Position numbers and translations under genes: made by a program
Notes under the pieces: generated by a model
Database searches by the model: none
What the model was told of the DNA's origin: nothing
Seen by the model: the letters and a program-made list of their open reading frames with translations, nothing else
Source of the DNA: Erythrobacter sp. HKB08
GTDB lineage: Bacteria; Pseudomonadota; Alphaproteobacteria; Sphingomonadales; Sphingomonadaceae
Assembly: GCF_004114695.1 (NCBI RefSeq)
Contig: NZ_CP035310.1
Location: forward strand, 372,001 to 436,000
Direction: 5' to 3'
DNA: 64,000 nucleotides
In this document: piece by piece, positions 43,946 through 57,400 of the stretch
Numbering within the stretch: position 1 is the first letter of the stretch
How the letters are laid out: each line of letters begins with the position of its first letter

Positions 43946-44209
43946 ATGGCCATGATCCGCAAAGCTGCGAGCGATATCATCGAGACCGATGTCGACGACG
44001 AGACCATCATCGTCAGCCTCGAAAGCGGCGAGATGTTCTCGCTGTCCGGCACCGCCCGGGCGATCTGGGAGAAGCTCGAGGCAGGGATGGACGAAAGCGA
44101 CCTGGTCGACGCCCTCACTGACGAGTTCGAGGTCGAAGAGGAGGTTCTGCGAGCCGATCTCGCCAAGTTCCTGGCAGATTCGCGCGAAGCGGGGCTGATC
44201 GAAAGCTGA
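43946..44209 (+). CDS. PqqD-like RiPP recognition element protein
   Basis: The 87-residue standalone PqqD-fold protein (a RiPP recognition element) binds the leader of a precursor peptide and presents it to the modifying enzyme. The pattern fits: an Ile/Val-rich strand (ETIIVSLESGEMFSLSGTA), then RAIWEKLEAGMDESDLVDAL and an acidic helix ending LADSREAGLIES. In lasso-peptide systems this is the B1 component. It is followed by two precursor genes, an asparagine-synthase-like gene and an ABC exporter. A second ATG lies two codons downstream. Confidence 0.9.
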   Translation: MAMIRKAASDIIETDVDDETIIVSLESGEMFSLSGTARAIWEKLEAGMDESDLVDALTDEFEVEEEVLRADLAKFLADSREAGLIES

Positions 44210-44219
44210 CCGCGCCGGT

Positions 44220-44248
44220 TTGCTCGCTTGGGGGCGATTCTCTATACT
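44220..44248 (+). promoter_or_regulatory. Predicted promoter for the precursor peptides
   Basis: TTGCTC (44220-44225) and TATACT (44243-44248) are separated by exactly 17 bases, a good housekeeping-type spacing with a 5-of-6 match at -10. The site lies just after the PqqD-like gene and 52 bases before precursor 1. It would let the peptides be expressed more strongly than the enzymes. Confidence 0.45.
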
Positions 44249-44300
44249 GGCGCGACAGGACTTGGCTGGGCCACGGCTCATGCAAACACTGGAGGCCGCG

Positions 44301-44429
44301 ATGAGGACGACGCGAAATACCCACAAACCGCAATGGCGCACACCGGTACTCAAGGCCATCGGCTCGATCGCCGATGTCGCGGGCAAGCCGGTCCCGTTCC
44401 GACAAGCCCACAACAACCGCAAGTCCTGA
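44301..44429 (+). CDS. RiPP precursor peptide 1 (lasso-type leader), 42 aa
   Basis: The frame starts at the ATG 5 bases after GGAGG and encodes a 42-residue peptide. Its leader contains PQWRTPVLKAIGSIADVAG, which fits the lasso leader signature aromatic-xx-P-x-L-xxx-G read by the PqqD-type protein. The putative core is GKPVPFRQAHNNRKS. The residue at the expected acidic ring-closing position (7-9 after Gly) is not Asp or Glu: Arg, Gln and Ala are there. It shares 29 of 42 residues with precursor 2, including IGSIADVAGKPVP and the ending NRKS. Confidence 0.78.
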   Translation: MRTTRNTHKPQWRTPVLKAIGSIADVAGKPVPFRQAHNNRKS

Positions 44430-44503
44430 TCTAGCGCGGGAATCCACCGGCAAGACGCCGTAAATGATTGCCGTTTCGGGCGAACGGCTTTACGAGCGCG
44501 GCG

Positions 44504-44632
44504 ATGACCAGGACGCAGAACACCGCGAAACCGGCATGGGACACCCCGGCACTCAAGCGTATCGGCTCGATCGCCGATGTCGCGGGCAAGCCGGTGCCGG
44601 TTCTCCAGGATGCCGGCAACCGCAAGTCCTGA
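44504..44632 (+). CDS. RiPP precursor peptide 2 (lasso-type leader), 42 aa
   Basis: The second 42-residue peptide has the same layout as the first: leader PAWDTPALKRIGSIADVAG and core GKPVPVLQDAGNRKS. Here an Asp lies at position 9 counted from the Gly (or 8 if the core starts at Lys), where a lasso cyclase would join it to the N-terminal amine. This makes it the better candidate for a classical lasso ring. The ribosome binding site is weak (ACGAG). Its last 23 bases overlap the likely start of the cyclase gene. Confidence 0.78.
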   Translation: MTRTQNTAKPAWDTPALKRIGSIADVAGKPVPVLQDAGNRKS

Positions 44633-46544
44633 GTCCGCTCGAAGGCAGGCAGACGCCTTGCCCGGCCTGATCGCTGCGCTGCATGGCTGGGCGAACCAAT
44701 CACAGGATGATCGCTGGCTCCGCTCGCTGACGGCGCGATTTTCGCTGCTCGCTGGTGTGCGGCAGGAAGAGTACGGATGGCTCGCGTCCGGTAGACTCGC
44801 CTCGCGGTCCGAATGTCTGGAGGGTTCGTTTGCGCGGCACGTCGTCGTCCTCGGTGCAATCGACGAGGCGGCGGACATTCGCGCTGGCAGTGCGGCGGAG
44901 ACCTACGCGCAGGCCCTGACGCGCTACGGCCCGGATGCCGATGCCCATATCGTCGGCAATTATGCCGCCATCGCGCTACTCGCCGATGGATCGGTCCGGC
45001 TGGCAAGGTCGCCATGGGACGCTCCGCCTCTTCATTTCACGAACGATGCGCGGCGCATGATCGCGGCGCCCCGGCTCGAACTGCTTTTCGCAGGCGGCGC
45101 CGAAGCGGAGCTCGATTACGACCGCATCGTCGACCAACTCGCCTACGACTTCCGCGATAACGAGGTGAAGGGCTGGTACCGCGACATCTTCGCCGTTCCG
45201 CTCGGCAGCGTCGTGACGTGCCGGCCCGGCGAATGGAGCGTCGATCGCTGGTACGATCCCGTCACCTTCCTGTCGGGCGAGCGCGTGCCTCCATCCGAGG
45301 CTGCAGGGCAGGCCTACACGCTGCTGCAGCAAGCCGCGCGTCATGCCTTGCGGCGCAGCGACAGCCCCGCACTTGCTTTGTCCGGCGGGCTCGATTCCCC
45401 GCTAGCGGCCTGCGCCCTGCTCGACGAACTGCCGCCGGACCACTCGCTGACCTCGATCACCTTCCGCCCGCACGCGGACTGGGACGGCGAGTGCGCCCCC
45501 GGCTCGATGGGCGACGAATGGCCGCTGGTTCAGGATTTCGCTGCCATGCACCCGCGGATCGCAGCCCATGAGGTCCGCGCCGACATGGACCGCCTCGCCG
45601 AAGACGAGCGCGAATTGCTGCGCGCGATGCGCCTGTTCGCGCCCGGTATCGCCAATATCGCGCCGCTCCATACGCTCTTCCGCGAGGCTAAGGCGCTCGG
45701 CTGCGACGCGGTCTTCACCGCCGGCCTTGCCAACCAGAGCTACAGCCAGGATGGCCGCTGGGCCTATGTCGAGAAGTTCCGCCATGGGCGCTGGGCGAGC
45801 CTGCTGCGGCAATTGTCCGCACGCCCCGGCGACAATCGCTCGCTGCTGCGCAAGTTCGCCGCGCTGAGCGTGCTGCCGCAGCTTCCGGCAAGCGCAAGAA
45901 AGGGGCTGCGCGCGCTCGTCCATCCGGGACGGGGCGACATGCTGGCACTGCTCACCCCGCTATCCAGACAGGCGCTGGCCGCCCAGCGCAGCCGTGCGGC
46001 AGGCCGTGGCGGCCAGTCCGACTGGGACGACCAGACCTTCCCGCGCAGCCGCGAGGAAGCCGTGCGCCACGATCACTATGCTGCGGATGGCGAAGGTGCG
46101 GACGTCGAATGGGCGCTCGGCTGGCGTCACGGCCTCGCACCGGTCGACGTCACCGCCTATCGCCCGCTGATCGAGTTCTGCCTCGGCCTGCCGACAGCCA
46201 GCTTCACCGACGAAGAGGGGGAGCGCAGCCTCGCGCGCCAGATGGCGCTCGGTCGCTTGCCCGAAGCGCAGCGGACCAACACGGACTACGGCGCGCATGG
46301 AGCCGACTGGCTCGTGGAGCTCGGCGAACGTCGGGATGAATATCGCGAGGCCTTGAAGGTCATGCGCGACCATCCGTTCCTCAGCCGGGTGATCGATCTC
46401 GAACGGGTTGAGCGACTGGTCGATGACTGGCCCGAGCGGCCCTCGCAGGACATCGACGAGGACTGGCCCCGCATGCTCGCCATCCCGCGCGCTATCCTCG
46501 CCGCCCGCTTCATAGGTGTGGTCGAAGGGCGCAACGACCTTTGA
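44610..46544 (+). CDS. Asparagine-synthase-like peptide cyclase
   Basis: The 644-residue protein has a degenerate N-terminal glutaminase-like domain without the nucleophilic Cys and an ATP-pyrophosphatase domain with the PP-loop ALSGGLDSPLAA near residue 258. Further conserved stretches are AVFTAGLANQSY, RPLIEFCLGLP and a C-terminal RTNTDYGAHGADW. This is the architecture of lasso-peptide isopeptide-forming cyclases, which adenylate an acidic side chain and join it to the core N-terminus. The start is uncertain: ATG at 44610 overlaps precursor 2; ATG at 44577 or TTG at 44656 are alternatives. Confidence 0.88.
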   Translation: MPATASPESARRQADALPGLIAALHGWANQSQDDRWLRSLTARFSLLAGVRQEEYGWLASGRLASRSECLEGSFARHVVVLGAIDEAADIRAGSAAETYAQALTRYGPDADAHIVGNYAAIALLADGSVRLARSPWDAPPLHFTNDARRMIAAPRLELLFAGGAEAELDYDRIVDQLAYDFRDNEVKGWYRDIFAVPLGSVVTCRPGEWSVDRWYDPVTFLSGERVPPSEAAGQAYTLLQQAARHALRRSDSPALALSGGLDSPLAACALLDELPPDHSLTSITFRPHADWDGECAPGSMGDEWPLVQDFAAMHPRIAAHEVRADMDRLAEDERELLRAMRLFAPGIANIAPLHTLFREAKALGCDAVFTAGLANQSYSQDGRWAYVEKFRHGRWASLLRQLSARPGDNRSLLRKFAALSVLPQLPASARKGLRALVHPGRGDMLALLTPLSRQALAAQRSRAAGRGGQSDWDDQTFPRSREEAVRHDHYAADGEGADVEWALGWRHGLAPVDVTAYRPLIEFCLGLPTASFTDEEGERSLARQMALGRLPEAQRTNTDYGAHGADWLVELGERRDEYREALKVMRDHPFLSRVIDLERVERLVDDWPERPSQDIDEDWPRMLAIPRAILAARFIGVVEGRNDL

Positions 46545-46557
46545 CAGCGCTGCGGAA

Positions 46558-48288
46558 ATGCGGGCATTCCGCCCCGTAACGATGCTCGCCATGCTGCCAA
46601 CACTCAAGCGCTACGCCCGGCCCTGGCGGCTGTGGGCGATGCTGGGCGTTACGCTGGCGGGCGCGGCGCTCGAAGGGGTCGGCTTCCTCATGCTCGTGCC
46701 GCTGGTCGATACAGCGCTCGGCGGCGCGGCCGGCGGCGCGGCAGGGTTCTTCGAGCAATGGGTCGGCCCGATGCCCGGCCTCGAGGTGCTGCTCGCAATC
46801 TTCATCGCCCTGCTCGCCCTTCGCGCATTGAGCGAGCTCGCCAACAGGCTGATCGCCTTCGACATCCGCATGGCGGTGATCGACGGCTTGCGGGGCCGCG
46901 CTGTGCGCGCGCTGGTCGGGGCGGACTGGCGCTATCTTTCGAGGCTCCGCCAGAGCGACAACCGCTCGCTGCTGCTGTCGGCAGTCGACCGGGCGGGGAA
47001 TGCGGCATCGGCCCTGTTCGGCACACTCAAGACCGCGACCAACCTCGTCGCCGTCGCCGTTGCCGCTTTCGTCATTTCTCCCACTTTCGCTCTCGCGGGA
47101 GCCGCGGCGGGCGCGCTCGTCCTGTTCCTCTACCGCGGGCTGCGGCGGCGGGCGGGCGAGCTCGGCAATGCGCTTGTCGGGCGCAACAAGGCGGTGTTCG
47201 GCAATCTCGAGACGATGCTCGACAGCCTGCGCGTGGTGAAGAGCTTCGGCGCCGAGGACATGGCTTCGCGCCGCGCAAGCGAAGGCTTTCGCGCCATGCG
47301 ACAGGTGCAGCGGCGCTATATCCTGCAGGCCGGGCTCGCGCGGCTGATACTGCAGCTTGGCGGCGGCATCGTGCTCGCGGCCATCGTATTCTTCGCGGTG
47401 ACCCGGTGGGAAGTGTCAGGCGCGCTGCTCTTGCCGCTGATCGCCATCTTCGCCCGTGCCGTTCCGCAGATCGGCAGCCTGCAGGAGCAGTGGCAGGACT
47501 TCGCCCACTCCTCGCCTGCGCTGGGCGAGACCGAGCGCCTCATCGCCGATGCCGAAGCGCATGAGGAGGTGGCCGGCGAGACGGGCCGGAGCGCCACGTC
47601 CCACTCGCTAGGAAACGGCTTGGCCCTGCGCGAAGTCACGGTTCGCCACGACGGCGAGCGACCAGCGCTCGATGCGGCGAGCCTCGAAGCGGCAGCGGGA
47701 AGCGTCATCGCGCTCACCGGGCCCTCGGGCTGCGGCAAAAGCACGCTTGCCGACGTGATCGGCGGCCTCATCGCGCCCGATGGCGGCGACGTGCTGCTCG
47801 ACGGCAAGGTACTTGAACCGGCGGACCGGAAGGGCTGGCGAGCGAAGGTCGCCTATGTACAGCAGGAACCGGTCCTCTTCGCCGGAACCCTGCGCGAGAA
47901 TTTCGCCTGGGCGGCTCCCGAGGCGAGCGACGAACAGATCCATGCGGCGCTTGCGCGAGCCAACGCCGGTTTCGTGCTCGAGCGGCCCGGGGGGCTCGAT
48001 GCCGAAACGGGCGATGCAGGGCGGTTCTTCTCCGGCGGCGAACGCCAGCGCATCGTGCTCGCCCGCGCGCTGCTGCGCGATCCCGAACTGCTGATCCTCG
48101 ACGAAGCGACAAGCGCGCTCGACCATGCTTCCGAAGCGGAGATCGCCAAGGCCATCGAAGGCATGCGCGGAAGCTGCACGATCCTCGTCATCACCCACCG
48201 CGGGCTGCTGAGCGATCTTGCCGACCTGCATGTCGCGATGGAAGCGGGACGGATCGTTTCCGCGACGCCTGCGCCTGAACGCGGGTAA
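46558..48288 (+). CDS. ABC exporter (membrane plus ATPase domains)
   Basis: The 576-residue half-transporter has about six membrane helices (residues 15-300) and a C-terminal ATPase with Walker A GPSGCGKSTLA near 388, signature FFSGGERQRIVLARAL and Walker B LLILDEATSALD. No N-terminal C39 peptidase domain is present, so it exports but does not cleave. It lies 13 bases after the cyclase gene and probably secretes the mature peptide and gives self-protection. A GTG at 46516 overlapping the cyclase gene is an alternative start. Confidence 0.9.
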   Translation: MRAFRPVTMLAMLPTLKRYARPWRLWAMLGVTLAGAALEGVGFLMLVPLVDTALGGAAGGAAGFFEQWVGPMPGLEVLLAIFIALLALRALSELANRLIAFDIRMAVIDGLRGRAVRALVGADWRYLSRLRQSDNRSLLLSAVDRAGNAASALFGTLKTATNLVAVAVAAFVISPTFALAGAAAGALVLFLYRGLRRRAGELGNALVGRNKAVFGNLETMLDSLRVVKSFGAEDMASRRASEGFRAMRQVQRRYILQAGLARLILQLGGGIVLAAIVFFAVTRWEVSGALLLPLIAIFARAVPQIGSLQEQWQDFAHSSPALGETERLIADAEAHEEVAGETGRSATSHSLGNGLALREVTVRHDGERPALDAASLEAAAGSVIALTGPSGCGKSTLADVIGGLIAPDGGDVLLDGKVLEPADRKGWRAKVAYVQQEPVLFAGTLRENFAWAAPEASDEQIHAALARANAGFVLERPGGLDAETGDAGRFFSGGERQRIVLARALLRDPELLILDEATSALDHASEAEIAKAIEGMRGSCTILVITHRGLLSDLADLHVAMEAGRIVSATPAPERG

Positions 48289-48415: not shown

Positions 48416-48910
48416 ATGACCAGCAAATTCCTGCGCTATTCGACCATGGCGCTCGCAACCGCGGGCCTCGCTCTCGCCGGTCCTGCGTCCGCGCAGTACC
48501 GCCAGAAGATTTCGCACAATCCAGCGCGTTGCTCGGCCAGTTCGGGCGCGGCGGTGAAGGTACAGATCAGCGGCATCGAATCCGCCACCGGCACCATCCG
48601 CGTGCAGAGCTATCGCGGCACCAAGGAAGACTGGCTCGAGAAGGGCCGCTGGATCAACCGGATCGAGCTTCCTGCCAAAAAGGGTTCGATGACGGTCTGC
48701 ATGCCGCTCCCCGGTCCGGGCACCTATGGCATAGCCGTGCGTCACGATGCCAACGGCAATGGCAAGACCGACATCAGCCAGGATGGCGGCGGCATGTCGA
48801 ACAACCCCAGCATCAACATCTTCAACCTCGGCAAGCCGAGCTACAAGAAGACCCAGTTCGTGGTCGGCGACAGCGTGACCTCGATCGGGATCACCATGCG
48901 CTACATGTAA
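48416..48910 (+). CDS. Exported DUF2141-like protein
   Basis: The 164-residue protein has a signal peptide ending ALAGPASAQ. The mature part matches the DUF2141 pattern: VKVQISGIESATGTIRVQSY, PLPGPGTYGIAVRHDANGNG, and KTDISQDGGGMSNNP, with a calcium-binding-like DANGNGKTD loop. The family is periplasmic and of unknown function. The start at 48416 follows from the signal peptide. It follows the RiPP exporter after 127 bases and may or may not belong to that cluster. Confidence 0.86.
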   Translation: MTSKFLRYSTMALATAGLALAGPASAQYRQKISHNPARCSASSGAAVKVQISGIESATGTIRVQSYRGTKEDWLEKGRWINRIELPAKKGSMTVCMPLPGPGTYGIAVRHDANGNGKTDISQDGGGMSNNPSINIFNLGKPSYKKTQFVVGDSVTSIGITMRYM

Positions 48911-53791: not shown

Positions 53792-56700
53792 TTGGCTGAG
53801 ATATTCATCTCCTATAATCGGGAGGACCAGGCGGCTGCCGGTCTCTTCGCCCGTGCCTTCGAGGCTGCCGGGCACTCGGTTTGGTGGGATGTCGCGCTCA
53901 GGGCCGGGCAAGTCTACGACGAAGTAACCGAACAGGCGCTGCGCACCGCGCGCGCAGTGGTCGTGCTGTGGTCGCCGCGCTCGGTCAATTCGCGCTGGGT
54001 CCGCGCAGAGGCGACGCTCGCCCAGCGCTTCGGGACCTTCGTGCCCTGCACTATCGAGCCGTGCGACCGGCCGATCATGTTCGAGCTGACGCAAACGCCC
54101 GACCTGTCGCACTGGCAGGGCGATGCGAGCGATCCGGCATGGGCCGCCTTCCTGCATCACGTGCGCGAATTCCTGAATGTCGGCAAGGCGGCTCAACCGG
54201 CCAGCGCGCCGGCCCAGCCCGGCATGCTGAGCGGCGAGTTGCAGCAGGCAGGCATCACCTCGACGCCTGCGCCGCCGCAACCGATCCCCCAACCCGCGCC
54301 CCAGCCGCAGCCCAACCTTCAACAAGCTGCGGCCACGCCGGCTCAGGCACCCGCCAGGAACGGCCAGAGCGAGCGGCGACAAATCACCTTCCTCGCTGCA
54401 GAGCCGGTCGGCGGCACCCAGCTCGCCTCGCAGTTCGATCCGGAAGACTGGCACGAATTCGTCACCTCGCTGCAGGCGCGCATCACGCCGGTGATCGAGA
54501 ACATGGGCGGCACTGCGAACTGGTCAGGGCCCGAGCTCTCCGCCCTGTTCGGCTATCCCCACGCCCAGGAACACGCAGCCGAGCGCGCCATTCGCGCAGG
54601 GATAGAGGTCGCCCGGCTCGGCGAGCAGATCGCCTGCGAGAACAACCTCGGCTGCGAGGGCGAGCTCAGCCTGCATTGCGGCATCCATACCGCGAGCGTC
54701 CTCGTCGCAGCATCGGCCGGCGGCGATGCGGAAATGTTCGGCGACGGGGCGACCGTTGCCTCCAGCACCTGCTCCGCCGCGCCGCCTTCGGGCGTGCTGG
54801 TGACGGATTCGGTGCGCGAACTGGCCGGCGGGGCATTCGACCTTGCCGATGGTCCCGCGAACGGCTCGACCCGCCTGTTTCAGGTGGAAGGCGCGAAGAA
54901 GCGCGTCCAACTGGCGCGCAGCTGGGCAAGCGGTGCATTGCACGGCTTCGTCGGACGCGAGGAAGAGCTCGCGATGCTCAAGAGCCGCTGGAAAAAGACC
55001 GAGGCGGGCGAGGGGCAACACGTGCTGGTGCGCGGCGAGCCGGGTATCGGCAAGACCCGCCTGGTCGAGGAATTCCACCGCTGGATCGGCGAGCGCGAGC
55101 ATAGCTGGGTGACGCTGCAGGGCGCATCGCTCTATCCCAACACGCCCTACCACGCGCTCGGCACGCTGGTGCGCAACCTCGCCGAGGGGCACGAAGGGCA
55201 CGCGGGCGAATGGCTCGAGATGCGGTCCGAGCAACTCGGGCTACCATCCAAGCTGCTGCCGCTGCTGGCGCCGAGCATCGGGCTGCGCCTGCCCGACCAC
55301 GTCCTGCCGACGACGATCGCCAACGAACAGCAGCGCCCGCAACTGCTCGCAACGATCATCGAGGCAGCCTTCATCCTCGCCAAGCGCAAGCCCGTGCTGC
55401 TGCTGGTCGACGACCTGCAATGGATCGACCCTTCGACGCTCGAAGTCGTGCACATGCTCGTCGAACAGGCGCAGACCGAGCGCATCATGGTGCTGTGCAC
55501 CGCCCGGCCCGAATTCGAAGCGCCGTGGAGCGACGACGAACACCATGCGCGCATCACGCTCGGCAAGCTCGGCACCGACGAGATGGCCCAGCTGGTCGCC
55601 GAAGCCGCCGGCGCCGCCGCCGATCTCGAAACCATCCAGAAAGTGCTCGACCGCGCCAACGGCGTGCCGCTTTTCGCCGAGGAACTCTCGCGCCTGCTCG
55701 CATCCGGCAATGGCGAGATCGGGGAACATGCCATGCCGCCAACCCTGCGCGAGCTTTTCGCGGCGCGCATGGACCGGATCGGCGATGCGCGCGAACTGCT
55801 GCAGGTCGCGGCAGTCATCGGGCGCGAGTTCAAGCCGTCGATCCTCGCCAGCATCGGCGATGCCGATTCCGCGTCGCTCGATGCGCATCTCGCGCGGTTG
55901 TGCGACGAGCAGCTGCTGTTCCGCCGCGGCGCGCCGCCGCTTGCAAGCTACCGCTTCAAGCATGCGCTGGTGCAGGACGCGGCCTATGAAACACTGCCCA
56001 AGAAGCGGCAGAAGGCGCTTCACCTAAAGGCTGCCGAAGTCCTCTCGAGCGAGGGTAATGGCGAGGCCGATATCGCGCAGGAAGTGCTCGCCATGCACTG
56101 GATGCGCGGCGACGCCTTCGACAAGGCCGCCGCTGCTTGGGAGAGCGCCGGCCAGGCCGCATACAGTCGCGGTGCCTGCAAGGAGGCGGTAAGCCACTTC
56201 CGCCAGGGCCTTGCCGCGCTGGAGCGGATGCCGGAAAGCGACGATCGCAACGCCTCCGAACTGCGCTTGTGGAGCGCGCTGAACCGCGCACTCCAGCAGA
56301 CGCTCGGCTACGCGAACCCGGTCACGGTCGAGGCGGCCAACAAGGCGCTCGCCCTCGCCAAGCAGAGCGGCACCCTGCGCAAGGCGGTGATCGAGGAAGC
56401 GCAGCTGTGGCGCGCCGTCCTGACCTCCGGCGACTATGCCGAGGCGGATCGCATTGCCGAGCGGGTCATCGCGCTGGGCCGCGAAATGGACGAGGGCCAT
56501 ATCCCGCCGTGGATCGACTATTTCGCGACCAATGCCCGCCTGCAGACCGATTTCTACGCCGGCCGGATCAATCATATCGAGCGCGACTACGCCGAGTTCT
56601 GCCGCACGATGGATAACGAGGAAGCGCATCGCCACGTGATGGACGATGTCGTCGGGATCGGCATCGGCGCGCTCGGTGCATGGATGATCGGACGGTCCGA

Positions 56701-57400
56701 TCTCGCGCAGGAGCGGATGGCGCAGGCCGTGCAGATGGGGAAGGAAAGCGGCCAGCCCTTCCCGGCGGCGGTTTCACTCCATTTCGCAGGCACGCTCAGC
56801 GCGCTCGACCTCGATCTCGACGCGACCCACGATTACTCGGCCAAGGCGCTCAAGATCTCGAAGGAGAACGGGCTCGCCTATATCGGGCATCTGGTGCAGG
56901 CGAAGCTCGACTGGGTCGGCGGGCGCGACGACAGCGCGCAGGCCAATGTCGAATCCATGCGCCGCTCGATCGACGCGATGGTAACCGCGGATTCGCGCGT
57001 CGGCATGATCTTCTACATGAACCGCCTGGCCATGGCGCTCGACGGCAAGGGCAAGGCGGAAGAGGCGATGGCGACCATCGAGGATGCGCTCAACGCCAAT
57101 CCTCAGGAACGCGTCATCCGCCCGCAATCGCTAATCGTGCGCGGGCGGTTCCACGAGGAAGCCGGCAGGCACGATGAGGCAGAGGCCGATTTCGCCCATG
57201 CCCTCAGCCTCGCCGAAGAGATGGGCGCCCTCGCGCTGGAGTTCTACGCGACCCACGCGCTGGCAAGCTTCCTCGCCGACCAGGACCGCCCCGAGGAAGC
57301 GCGCAAGGCGATCGAAAGCGTGCTCGCCAAGTGCGAGCCGGAAACCAACTCGCCCTATCTCGACATGGTCAGGGAGCTGAAGGCAGAGCTGGGCGGCTGA
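53792..57400 (+). CDS. TIR - degenerate cyclase - ATPase - TPR protein
   Basis: The 1202-residue protein starts with TTG; translation begins MAEIFISYNREDQ. A TIR domain (about 1-135) has a candidate NADase Glu73 in SRWVRAEAT. A Pro/Gln-rich linker (150-190) leads to a class III cyclase-like domain (195-370) whose metal Asps are replaced: the first by Glu204 in ITFLAAEPVGGT and the second by Pro in SGPELSALFG. A STAND-type ATPase follows, with Walker A GEPGIGKT (Lys421) and Walker B LLLVDDLQWID (Asp540/541). TPR-like helices fill about 740-1195. STAND proteins with TIR effectors often act in immunity or signalling; the trigger is unknown. It ends exactly where the convergent prenyl synthase gene ends. 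Confidence 0.88.
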   Translation: MAEIFISYNREDQAAAGLFARAFEAAGHSVWWDVALRAGQVYDEVTEQALRTARAVVVLWSPRSVNSRWVRAEATLAQRFGTFVPCTIEPCDRPIMFELTQTPDLSHWQGDASDPAWAAFLHHVREFLNVGKAAQPASAPAQPGMLSGELQQAGITSTPAPPQPIPQPAPQPQPNLQQAAATPAQAPARNGQSERRQITFLAAEPVGGTQLASQFDPEDWHEFVTSLQARITPVIENMGGTANWSGPELSALFGYPHAQEHAAERAIRAGIEVARLGEQIACENNLGCEGELSLHCGIHTASVLVAASAGGDAEMFGDGATVASSTCSAAPPSGVLVTDSVRELAGGAFDLADGPANGSTRLFQVEGAKKRVQLARSWASGALHGFVGREEELAMLKSRWKKTEAGEGQHVLVRGEPGIGKTRLVEEFHRWIGEREHSWVTLQGASLYPNTPYHALGTLVRNLAEGHEGHAGEWLEMRSEQLGLPSKLLPLLAPSIGLRLPDHVLPTTIANEQQRPQLLATIIEAAFILAKRKPVLLLVDDLQWIDPSTLEVVHMLVEQAQTERIMVLCTARPEFEAPWSDDEHHARITLGKLGTDEMAQLVAEAAGAAADLETIQKVLDRANGVPLFAEELSRLLASGNGEIGEHAMPPTLRELFAARMDRIGDARELLQVAAVIGREFKPSILASIGDADSASLDAHLARLCDEQLLFRRGAPPLASYRFKHALVQDAAYETLPKKRQKALHLKAAEVLSSEGNGEADIAQEVLAMHWMRGDAFDKAAAAWESAGQAAYSRGACKEAVSHFRQGLAALERMPESDDRNASELRLWSALNRALQQTLGYANPVTVEAANKALALAKQSGTLRKAVIEEAQLWRAVLTSGDYAEADRIAERVIALGREMDEGHIPPWIDYFATNARLQTDFYAGRINHIERDYAEFCRTMDNEEAHRHVMDDVVGIGIGALGAWMIGRSDLAQERMAQAVQMGKESGQPFPAAVSLHFAGTLSALDLDLDATHDYSAKALKISKENGLAYIGHLVQAKLDWVGGRDDSAQANVESMRRSIDAMVTADSRVGMIFYMNRLAMALDGKGKAEEAMATIEDALNANPQERVIRPQSLIVRGRFHEEAGRHDEAEADFAHALSLAEEMGALALEFYATHALASFLADQDRPEEARKAIESVLAKCEPETNSPYLDMVRELKAELGG

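What the first reader, a model, noticed from the sequence alone, without database searches (positions are those of the whole stretch)
43946..48288. Compact lasso-like RiPP cluster with twin precursors
Directly seen: a PqqD-fold gene, two 42-codon peptides sharing 29 residues, an asparagine-synthase-like protein with an intact PP-loop and an ABC exporter, all on one strand in 4.3 kb. The leader motif W-xx-P-x-L-xxx-G matches the signature read by lasso B1 proteins. The inferred product is a previously undescribed peptide with core GKPVPxxQxxxNRKS, conserved Pro-rich front and conserved C-terminal Ser.
Basis: partly seen in the sequence, partly recalled or inferred. Interest (0 to 1): 0.88.

Follow-up and report, generated by a model that had tools for sequence, protein, structure and literature searches.

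The report
Split lasso-like pathway, glutamine replaces acid
A bacterium and its relatives carry a lasso-peptide-type production line whose peptides mostly have glutamine where lasso peptides need an acidic residue to close their ring, and whose protease and kinase genes sit elsewhere in the genome, which points to unusual ring-closing chemistry that can be tested.

Summary
In detail: B1/PqqD, two 42-codon precursors (29/42 identical), an AsnB-like C with PP-loop and an ABC exporter lie on one strand at 43946-48288. It is not a complete ordinary lasso cluster. (1) B2 protease and tailoring kinase are missing from it, but the genome holds one lasso B2 and a kinase beside purC. In relatives both are kept, linked or not: B2 in 46 of 46 C-positive versus 87 of 252 C-negative genomes; kinase in 36 of 36 C-positive genomes tested. 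(2) The A1 core has no Asp/Glu. In 71 distinct C loci with an assigned precursor the ring position holds an amide in 58 (Gln8 in 54) and an acid in 13, with at least three switches on the C tree. Best reading: a dispersed, paeninodin-like (Ser-phosphorylated) RiPP pathway whose C acts at residue 8, now Gln. No product or reaction is shown; a linear phosphopeptide remains a serious rival.

The parts
43946..44209 (+). B1 / RiPP recognition element (PqqD-like, 87 aa)
   Evidence: PF05402 70.1 bits, cutoff 23.4; NF033536 lasso_PqqD 47.9 bits, below its cutoff of 80
44301..44429 (+). precursor A1, 42 aa, leader W-xx-P-x-L, core GKPVPFRQAHNNRKS (boundary inferred; Gln8, no Asp/Glu in the core)
   Evidence: ORF; GGAGG 5 nt before the ATG; like precursors beside C in relatives
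44504..44632 (+). precursor A2, 42 aa, core GKPVPVLQDAGNRKS (boundary inferred; Gln8, Asp9)
   Evidence: ORF; NF033521 lasso leader 12.4 bits, below its cutoff of 19; 29 of 42 residues shared with A1
44658..46544 (+). C, asparagine-synthetase-like cyclase homologue, 628 aa from TTG 44658 (start uncertain), PP-loop SGGLDS
   Evidence: PF00733 46.3 bits; AlphaFold2 model pLDDT 89.0, pTM 0.91; Z 26.0 to TsnB9, 24.0 to beta-lactam synthetase, 23.6 to AsnB
46516..48288 (+). D, ABC exporter (open frame from GTG 46516, overlapping the end of C; true start uncertain)
   Evidence: PF00005 107.1 and PF00664 41.3 bits
43142..43888 (-). flank, not part of the system: ribulose-phosphate 3-epimerase
   Evidence: PF00834 280.9 bits; its protein cluster is near C in 27 of 41 loci
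48416..48910 (+). flank, not part of the system: DUF2141 protein
   Evidence: PF09912 84.1 bits; its protein cluster is near C in 29 of 41 loci

Best explanation
A paeninodin-like (C-terminal-Ser-phosphorylated) lasso-type RiPP pathway of Erythrobacteraceae, dispersed over three loci. B1 binds the W-xx-P-x-L leader of A1/A2 (inferred from homology). The kinase beside purC phosphorylates the C-terminal Ser (inferred). B1 with the trans-encoded B2 cuts after V-A, releasing G1-K2-P3... (inferred). C closes a ring between the N-terminal amine and the side chain of residue 8, which here is Gln (inferred). The likeliest product is the gamma-glutamyl isopeptide that Glu8 relatives would also give, formed with loss of NH3; whether the amide is exchanged directly or first deamidated is open. 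D exports it (inferred). Shown here: gene content, co-retention of B2 and kinase with C, conservation of Gln8, acid/amide switching on the C tree. Not shown: any reaction or product.
For: Gene content. The trans B2 passes the NCBIfam lasso B2 cutoff; Cys and His in 22 of 22 B2s aligned. PF13471 in 46 of 46 C-positive and 87 of 252 C-negative family genomes at one search depth (Fisher p 4e-19, kinship not corrected). Linked B2: 26 genomes, 21 without another; not linked: 20, of which 19 have exactly one elsewhere and one has two. Lone B2 kept in G207, G238, G058, G078, G062, G086, G197, which have no member of the second-C clade. Kinase elsewhere in 20 of 20 tested genomes whose locus lacks it, best E 1e-29 to 7e-43, purC in view in 19 of 20; 16 of 16 kinase-linked genomes, 15 with no other at 1e-15; C-negatives 12 of 60 at 1e-15, 5 of 60 at 1e-25. 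An invariant His, Lys, Asp, Asp set in 34 of 34 kinases. Ring position amide in 58, acid in 13 of 71 loci; 4 changes on the C tree, at least 3 forced.
Against: No product, transcript or enzyme assay. Gln cannot be condensed as an acid, and a review says single substitutions are well tolerated except at the acidic residue (PMC13352647, passage). Two cores have 12 residues, four after Gln8, hardly a threadable tail (recalled). The own genome has a second lasso-type cluster with no B2 in it, so the lone B2 may serve that one; G015 has a lone B2 and that second C but no window-type C. In G158, G002 and G096 the unlinked B2 lies in a second cluster with its own C, and in G221, G037 and G258 beside other lasso-type genes. 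The beta-lactam synthetase Lys falls on a variable position, in an insignificant HMM stretch.
Confidence: 0.5

Rival explanations
1. C activates the Gln8 carboxamide oxygen with ATP, as PP-loop relatives such as argininosuccinate synthetase and TilS activate ureido or amide-like oxygens (recalled). The N-terminal amine attacks and AMP leaves, giving a macrocyclic amidine (core minus H2O).
For: PP-loop residues G-L-D-S invariant in the 36 C proteins of alignment A1; AsnB/beta-lactam synthetase fold; 41 of 60 amide-type cores have no acid at all; no further gene stands between B1 and D in the window.
Against: Glu8 members sit beside Gln8 sisters on the C tree, which a shared isopeptide product explains more simply. 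No column separates Gln8 from Glu8 enzymes cleanly.
Confidence: 0.12
2. The product is not ringed at Gln8. It is a linear, C-terminally phosphorylated peptide, comparable to the linear polyphosphorylated peptides of Bacillota, and C has been repurposed, for example to act on the C-terminal carboxylate.
For: C-terminal Ser and kinase retained; very short tails in some cores; the window C scores 29 bits on the lasso cyclase model against 90.7 for a Glu8 and 132.3 for an Asp8 relative. LPPs share the other genes but lack the cyclase (PMC13381572, section 6 and passages).
Against: C is kept in 46 of 298 genomes, its G-L-D-S invariant in 36 of 36 aligned. Residue 8 or 9 is the core side chain held most constant before the terminal Ser, and it alternates with Asp/Glu.
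Confidence: 0.28
3. Ordinary acid-dependent lasso peptide: only A2 (Asp9) is productive and A1 is a decayed copy.
For: A2 has Asp9, a permitted ring position; Asp9 also follows Gln8 in L036, L037 and L038.
Against: 46 of 60 amide-type precursors have no acid at 7-9 and 41 none anywhere in the core; 73 precursors were collected in 71 loci, so nearly all stand alone. A1 keeps leader, Gln8 and the terminal RKS.
Confidence: 0.07
4. Decaying remnant of a lasso cluster that has lost B2 and kinase.
For: The window cluster lacks both.
Against: Precursors, C and chromosomal place are conserved across genera, and B2 and kinase are retained in trans.
Confidence: 0.03

Closest known systems
Paeninodin-like phosphorylated lasso peptides (paeninodin, pseudomycoidin, SyanA of Sphingobium)
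   Same: WxxP leader, discrete RRE, HprK-like kinase with His-Lys-Asp-Asp, C-terminal Ser, AsnB-like C, B2 (features from passages of PMC9266682, and sections 6 and 9 of PMC13381572; compared)
   Different: Amide (Gln8) instead of Asp/Glu at the ring position in A1; B2 and kinase unlinked; Val instead of Thr at leader -2; no linked nucleotidyltransferase
BsfA (Bradymonas sediminis), Ile(-2) phosphorylated lasso family
   Same: Val/Ile at leader -2, tailoring kinase, B1 and B2; its authors report Ile/Val(-2) precursors in Sphingomonadales, all with a kinase or phosphotransferase gene in the cluster (PMC10368454: abstract, sections 22, 24, 26 and passages)
   Different: BsfA is assigned Gly1 and Asp8; the term Gln does not occur in the main text. 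Its supplementary alignments were not seen, so this family may be listed there
Linear polyphosphorylated peptides (LPP) of Bacillota
   Same: RRE, HprK-like kinase, transporter, [Y/W]xxP-type leader (PMC13381572, sections 6 and 9)
   Different: LPP clusters lack the cyclase and use a signal-peptidase-like leader peptidase; here C is kept
Lasso clusters predicted in Erythrobacter genomes
   Same: Lasso peptide clusters are reported as predictions in several Erythrobacter species (PMC9723273, passages)
   Different: No precursor or ring residue is given in the passages seen; whether they are this family was not tested
TsnB9 hydroxyamidotransferase, beta-lactam synthetase, asparagine synthetase B
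   Same: Nearest solved folds of C: Z 26.0, 24.0 and 23.6
   Different: 13-17% identity over aligned residues; their substrates are not RiPP precursors

Membership tests
lasso peptide | leader with [Y/W]xxPx[L/V/I/..] and a discrete RRE | tested here: met
   W-xx-P-x-L in A1 and A2; PqqD-fold B1 adjacent. Binding itself not tested
lasso peptide | B2 cysteine protease | tested here: met
   Not in the cluster; the only PF13471 gene found in the genome is at C1:2498072 and passes NF033537. That it acts on A1/A2 is inferred
lasso peptide | AsnB-like macrolactam synthetase C | tested here: inconclusive
   PF00733, PP-loop and fold present. NF033535 29 bits against cutoff 525, but the second C of this genome, beside an acid-bearing precursor, also fails it at 154.8
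lasso peptide | Asp or Glu at core position 7-9 as ring-closing residue | tested here: not met
   A1 core has no Asp/Glu (A2 has Asp9). In the family 58 of 71 loci have an amide at the aligned position
lasso peptide | Thr at leader position -2 | tested here: not met
   Val(-2) in A1 and A2 with the boundary inferred here. An Ile(-2) exception is proven for BsfA (PMC10368454, section 24)
lasso peptide | threaded lariat product | not testable with these tools
   needs purified product, MS/MS, proteolysis and NMR
paeninodin-like phosphorylated lasso peptides | HprK-like kinase with His-Lys-Asp-Asp | tested here: met
   Trans kinase at C1:1370736-1371473 beside purC; a His, Lys, Asp, Asp set invariant in 34 of 34 kinases aligned. 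Its substrate is inferred
paeninodin-like phosphorylated lasso peptides | C-terminal Ser in the precursor | tested here: met
   A1 and A2 end in Arg-Lys-Ser; 72 of 73 collected precursors end in Ser, Ser or Thr being asked for in that pattern
paeninodin-like phosphorylated lasso peptides | linked nucleotidyltransferase (common, not universal) | tested here: not met
   no match within 7 kb of the window C to a profile made from nine relatives
linear polyphosphorylated peptides (LPP) | no macrolactam cyclase | tested here: not met
   C homologue with PP-loop present
linear polyphosphorylated peptides (LPP) | SpI-like leader peptidase | not tested
   no search for it was made

The most novel reading that the evidence does not exclude
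A large family of lasso-type synthetases in Sphingomonadales closes its macrocycle on a carboxamide (Gln8 or Asn9) instead of a carboxylate, by ATP-driven transamidation or amidine formation by C, possibly with the transglutaminase-fold B2. That would be a new ring-forming reaction for RiPPs.
Probability: 0.3. Interest if true: 0.9.

Novelty: new variant of a known kind. Interest (0 to 1): 0.72.

Why it matters
The one residue regarded as indispensable in lasso peptides is replaced by its uncharged amide in 58 of 71 distinct loci of one enzyme family, while relatives still use Asp or Glu, so natural pairs exist for finding what the cyclase really needs. If the ring is closed on Gln, the activation chemistry of AsnB-like cyclases is broader than thought, and mining rules that ask for Asp/Glu at 7-9 and a complete cluster would overlook such families. 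The dispersal of B2 and kinase suggests that a usually clustered RiPP pathway can be split over the chromosome and still be kept together by selection.

Tried and rejected
Rejected: the leader Asp (D of D-V-A) as ring acid with an earlier core start. That site is D in 60 of 73 precursors but A, N, E or S in 13, and acid-type members with the short leader keep it besides their ring acid. Rejected: chance ORFs (conserved across genera). Rejected: the weak kinase hits (58-68 bits) of C-negative genomes as the purC kinase: seven such regions (L213-L219) show, by eye, HprK-like and nucleotidyltransferase-like neighbours, several with a PqqD-like gene, and purC was found in none of the ten control regions fetched. 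Of the 12 C-negative genomes with a hit, G014 was not fetched and of G011 none of its three places.

Weak or unclear: no column separates Gln8 from Glu8 enzymes. The beta-lactam synthetase Lys comparison rests on an HMM stretch of -2.4 bits. At one solo-kinase locus (L195) an ABC gene matches the D profile at 119.5 bits, not followed. The direction of the acid/amide switches is not established: only L065 (acid) and L164/L165 (amide) are nested well; L057/L110 could be retained acid. No paper on Gln at the ring position, on an amidine or on a split lasso cluster was found with searches; supplements and subscription papers were not seen.

Limits of counts: controls were searched to a smaller depth than some tests (kinase: up to 39 candidates scored per genome, all; second C: at most 4 per genome). 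For B2 the comparison is within, 14 scored per genome. Of the 46 C-positive genomes, 36 were in the kinase searches; the other ten were not (among them G023, G087, G116, G151, G212 and G250, whose C loci show a kinase by profile; G082, G168, G267 and G288 were not examined or lie at a contig edge). C-positive means E <= 1e-20 and includes distant members. 108 loci were reduced to 91 at <97% C identity; 20 of 91 were set aside for want of a clear precursor (contig edge, none found, or odd), among them L183 (odd, Gln at 7) and L187 and L189 (acidic candidates). Precursors were picked by eye from motif lists, so leader features and the last Ser are partly by construction; residue 8 was not in the motif. 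The C tree is the quick method, SH-aLRT only. Genomes are not independent, so the Fisher values overstate.

Full report
What is there. On the + strand at 43946-48288 lie a PqqD-fold protein (B1), two 42-codon peptides, an asparagine-synthetase-like protein (C) and an ABC exporter (D). A1 and A2 share 29 of 42 residues. Both have a W-xx-P-x-L-xxx-G leader and the block G-S-I-A-D-V-A followed by GKPVPFRQAHNNRKS (A1) or GKPVPVLQDAGNRKS (A2); the leader/core boundary is inferred. C has the SGGLDS PP-loop. Its AlphaFold2 model (pLDDT 89.0, pTM 0.91) is closest to TsnB9 hydroxyamidotransferase (Z 26.0), beta-lactam synthetase (24.0) and AsnB (23.6). The genome is a single contig of 2.75 Mb. Genome G104, of the same genus, has a contig of the same length, 1,702,330 bases, as one of Parerythrobacter lutipelagi, Erythrobacteraceae, so the window is probably from that genus.

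The locus in relatives. A C homologue at E <= 1e-20 occurs in 46 of 298 family genomes. Of 41 loci compared, 27 have the rpe cluster and 29 the DUF2141 cluster near C, so the place is often the same and inheritance largely vertical. Named carriers of a relative include Parerythrobacter, Pontixanthobacter, Qipengyuania, Parapontixanthobacter, Actirhodobacter and Croceicoccus. Some relatives carry B2, an HprK-like kinase and a nucleotidyltransferase in the cluster; the window locus does not.

Where B2 is. The own genome has one PF13471 match, at C1:2498072, between an acetate-CoA ligase and an acyl-CoA dehydrogenase. It passes the NCBIfam lasso B2 model (61.1 against 33 bits). In one search of the 298 genomes PF13471 is found in 133: in all 46 C-positive ones and in 87 of the 252 others (Fisher p 4e-19, without correction for kinship). 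By positions, B2 lies within 10 kb of C in 26 of the 46, and 21 of those have no other; of the 20 without a near one, 19 have exactly one elsewhere and G288 has two. Seven of these (G207, G238, G058, G078, G062, G086, G197) keep a lone B2 without the second type of C: four have no match to it at 1e-20 and three only weak ones of E 3e-22 to 2e-24 (28% and 30% identity where shown) (at most 4 candidates scored per genome), and the 13 kb fetched around B2 shows none of the protein clusters to which the second-type C, exporter, kinase and B1 of other genomes belong. This speaks for a need of B2 by the window-type C.

Where the kinase is. A lasso-type kinase was sought in 20 genomes whose window-type locus lacks one: 20 of 20 have one elsewhere, best E 1.1e-29 to 6.7e-43. 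purC, identified in G000 by TIGR00081 and elsewhere by BLAST clustering, lies within about 4 kb in 19 of 20, the other stretch starting at a contig edge; no C, B1 or B2 profile match lies in these 8-12 kb stretches, and one ABC gene does. Conversely, 16 of 16 genomes with a linked kinase show it, and 15 of them no other at E <= 1e-15. Among 60 C-negative genomes 12 have a match at 1e-15 and 5 at 1e-25 (searched less deeply). A His, Lys, Asp, Asp set like that reported for lasso kinases (PMC9266682, passages) is invariant in 34 of 34 kinases. In the tested genomes the pathway's parts are thus kept together though they are scattered; that they act together is inference.

A second lasso-type cluster. 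The own genome also holds two sulfotransferases, an Asp/Asn-hydroxylase-like gene, a kinase, B1, a precursor with an acidic core, a C and a glycosyltransferase at about C1:2475100-2481520, 17 kb from the lone B2, and may share that B2. G015, of the same genus, has the second C and a lone B2 but not the window-type C, and only the one kinase match that lies near its second C. This weakens an exclusive B2 link, while the purC kinase follows the window-type C. In G158, G002 and G096 the unlinked B2 lies in a second cluster with its own C; in G221, G037 and G258 beside exporter and nucleotidyltransferase-like genes. A similar gene set is listed for Pontixanthobacter (PMC10040529, passages).

The ring position. 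From 108 loci, 91 remain at under 97% C identity, and a precursor was assigned in 71. Counting the core from the second residue after the leader Val/Ile, the ring position holds an amide in 58 loci (Gln8 54, Gln9 2, Asn9 2) and an acid in 13 (Glu8 3, Asp8 5, Asp9 5). Among the 73 precursors of these loci Gln8 occurs 55 times; of core positions 1-9 only Gly1 (50) comes near, and the last residue is Ser in 72, which was partly asked for. 41 of 60 amide-type cores have no Asp or Glu at all and 46 none at 7-9. On the tree of C, amide and acid need 4 changes, at least 3 forced by well-supported branches. Glu8 (L065; L057 with L110) stands beside Gln8 sisters and Gln8 (L164 with L165) inside an Asp8 group; directions are not established. 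Gln/Glu at 8 and Asn/Asp at 9 thus behave as alternatives at one position. The papers seen define lasso peptides by Asp or Glu at 7-9 (PMC10368454 and PMC9266682, passages), and a 2026 review says single substitutions are tolerated except at the acidic residue (PMC13352647, passage).

How it most likely works. A W-xx-P leader with kinase is typical of paeninodin-like lasso peptides (PMC13381572, sections 6 and 9), the kinase of that group modifies the C-terminal Ser (PMC9266682, passages), and Ile at -2 has a tested precedent in BsfA (PMC10368454, section 24). So B1 would present the leader, the kinase would phosphorylate the Ser, B2 would cut after V-A, C would act at residue 8 and D would export. 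Closing the ring on Gln8 with loss of NH3 gives the same bond as Glu8 does with loss of water, which would explain the interchange. An amidine is possible because PP-loop enzymes such as argininosuccinate synthetase activate amide-like oxygens (recalled). A linear phosphopeptide with a repurposed C remains a serious rival: the window C scores only 29 bits on the lasso cyclase model against 90.7 (Glu8 relative L057) and 132.3 (Asp8 relative L072), and two cores of 12 residues leave four residues after Gln8, too few for a usual threaded tail (recalled).

Verdict. It should not be filed as a lasso peptide until a product is seen, because the defining acid is missing in A1. No paper on Gln at this position was found with the searches listed; Ile/Val(-2) precursors of Sphingomonadales and lasso clusters of Erythrobacter are in print (PMC10368454, PMC9723273), and these may include this family.

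Noticed in passing
L034:99-6521 (own genome, about C1:2475100-2481520): Second lasso-type cluster: two sulfotransferases, Asp/Asn-hydroxylase-like gene, kinase, B1, 43-aa precursor with acidic core, C, family 8 glycosyltransferase; no B2 inside it, the genome's only PF13471 match is 17 kb away.
   Followed up: partly
L084 (G207), near 6.4 kb: A lone B2 beside secDF/yajC-like genes (by eye), where three genomes of the same genus (L083, L085, L087) have a second cluster with kinase, B2 and C: it looks like a decayed cluster of which B2 was kept.
   Followed up: partly
L074 and L168: Two precursors with Asn at core position 9, the amide counterpart of Asp9.
   Followed up: partly
L213-L219: In C-negative genomes, HprK-like genes with nucleotidyltransferase-like and often PqqD-like neighbours, some next to a small protein with a twin-arginine-like signal (by eye): perhaps an HPr-rel-A type system.
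   Followed up: no
L108 (about 2.1 kb after C start) and L121 (about 2.2 kb): Further precursor-like ORFs with W-xx-P leaders, about 2.1-2.2 kb after the start of C.
   Followed up: no
L115 and L184: Shortest cores of the family (12 aa), with four residues after Gln8.
   Followed up: no
window 53792-57400: 1202-aa protein with TIR_2, AAA and TPR matches, a possible signalling or defence-type ATPase.
   Followed up: no
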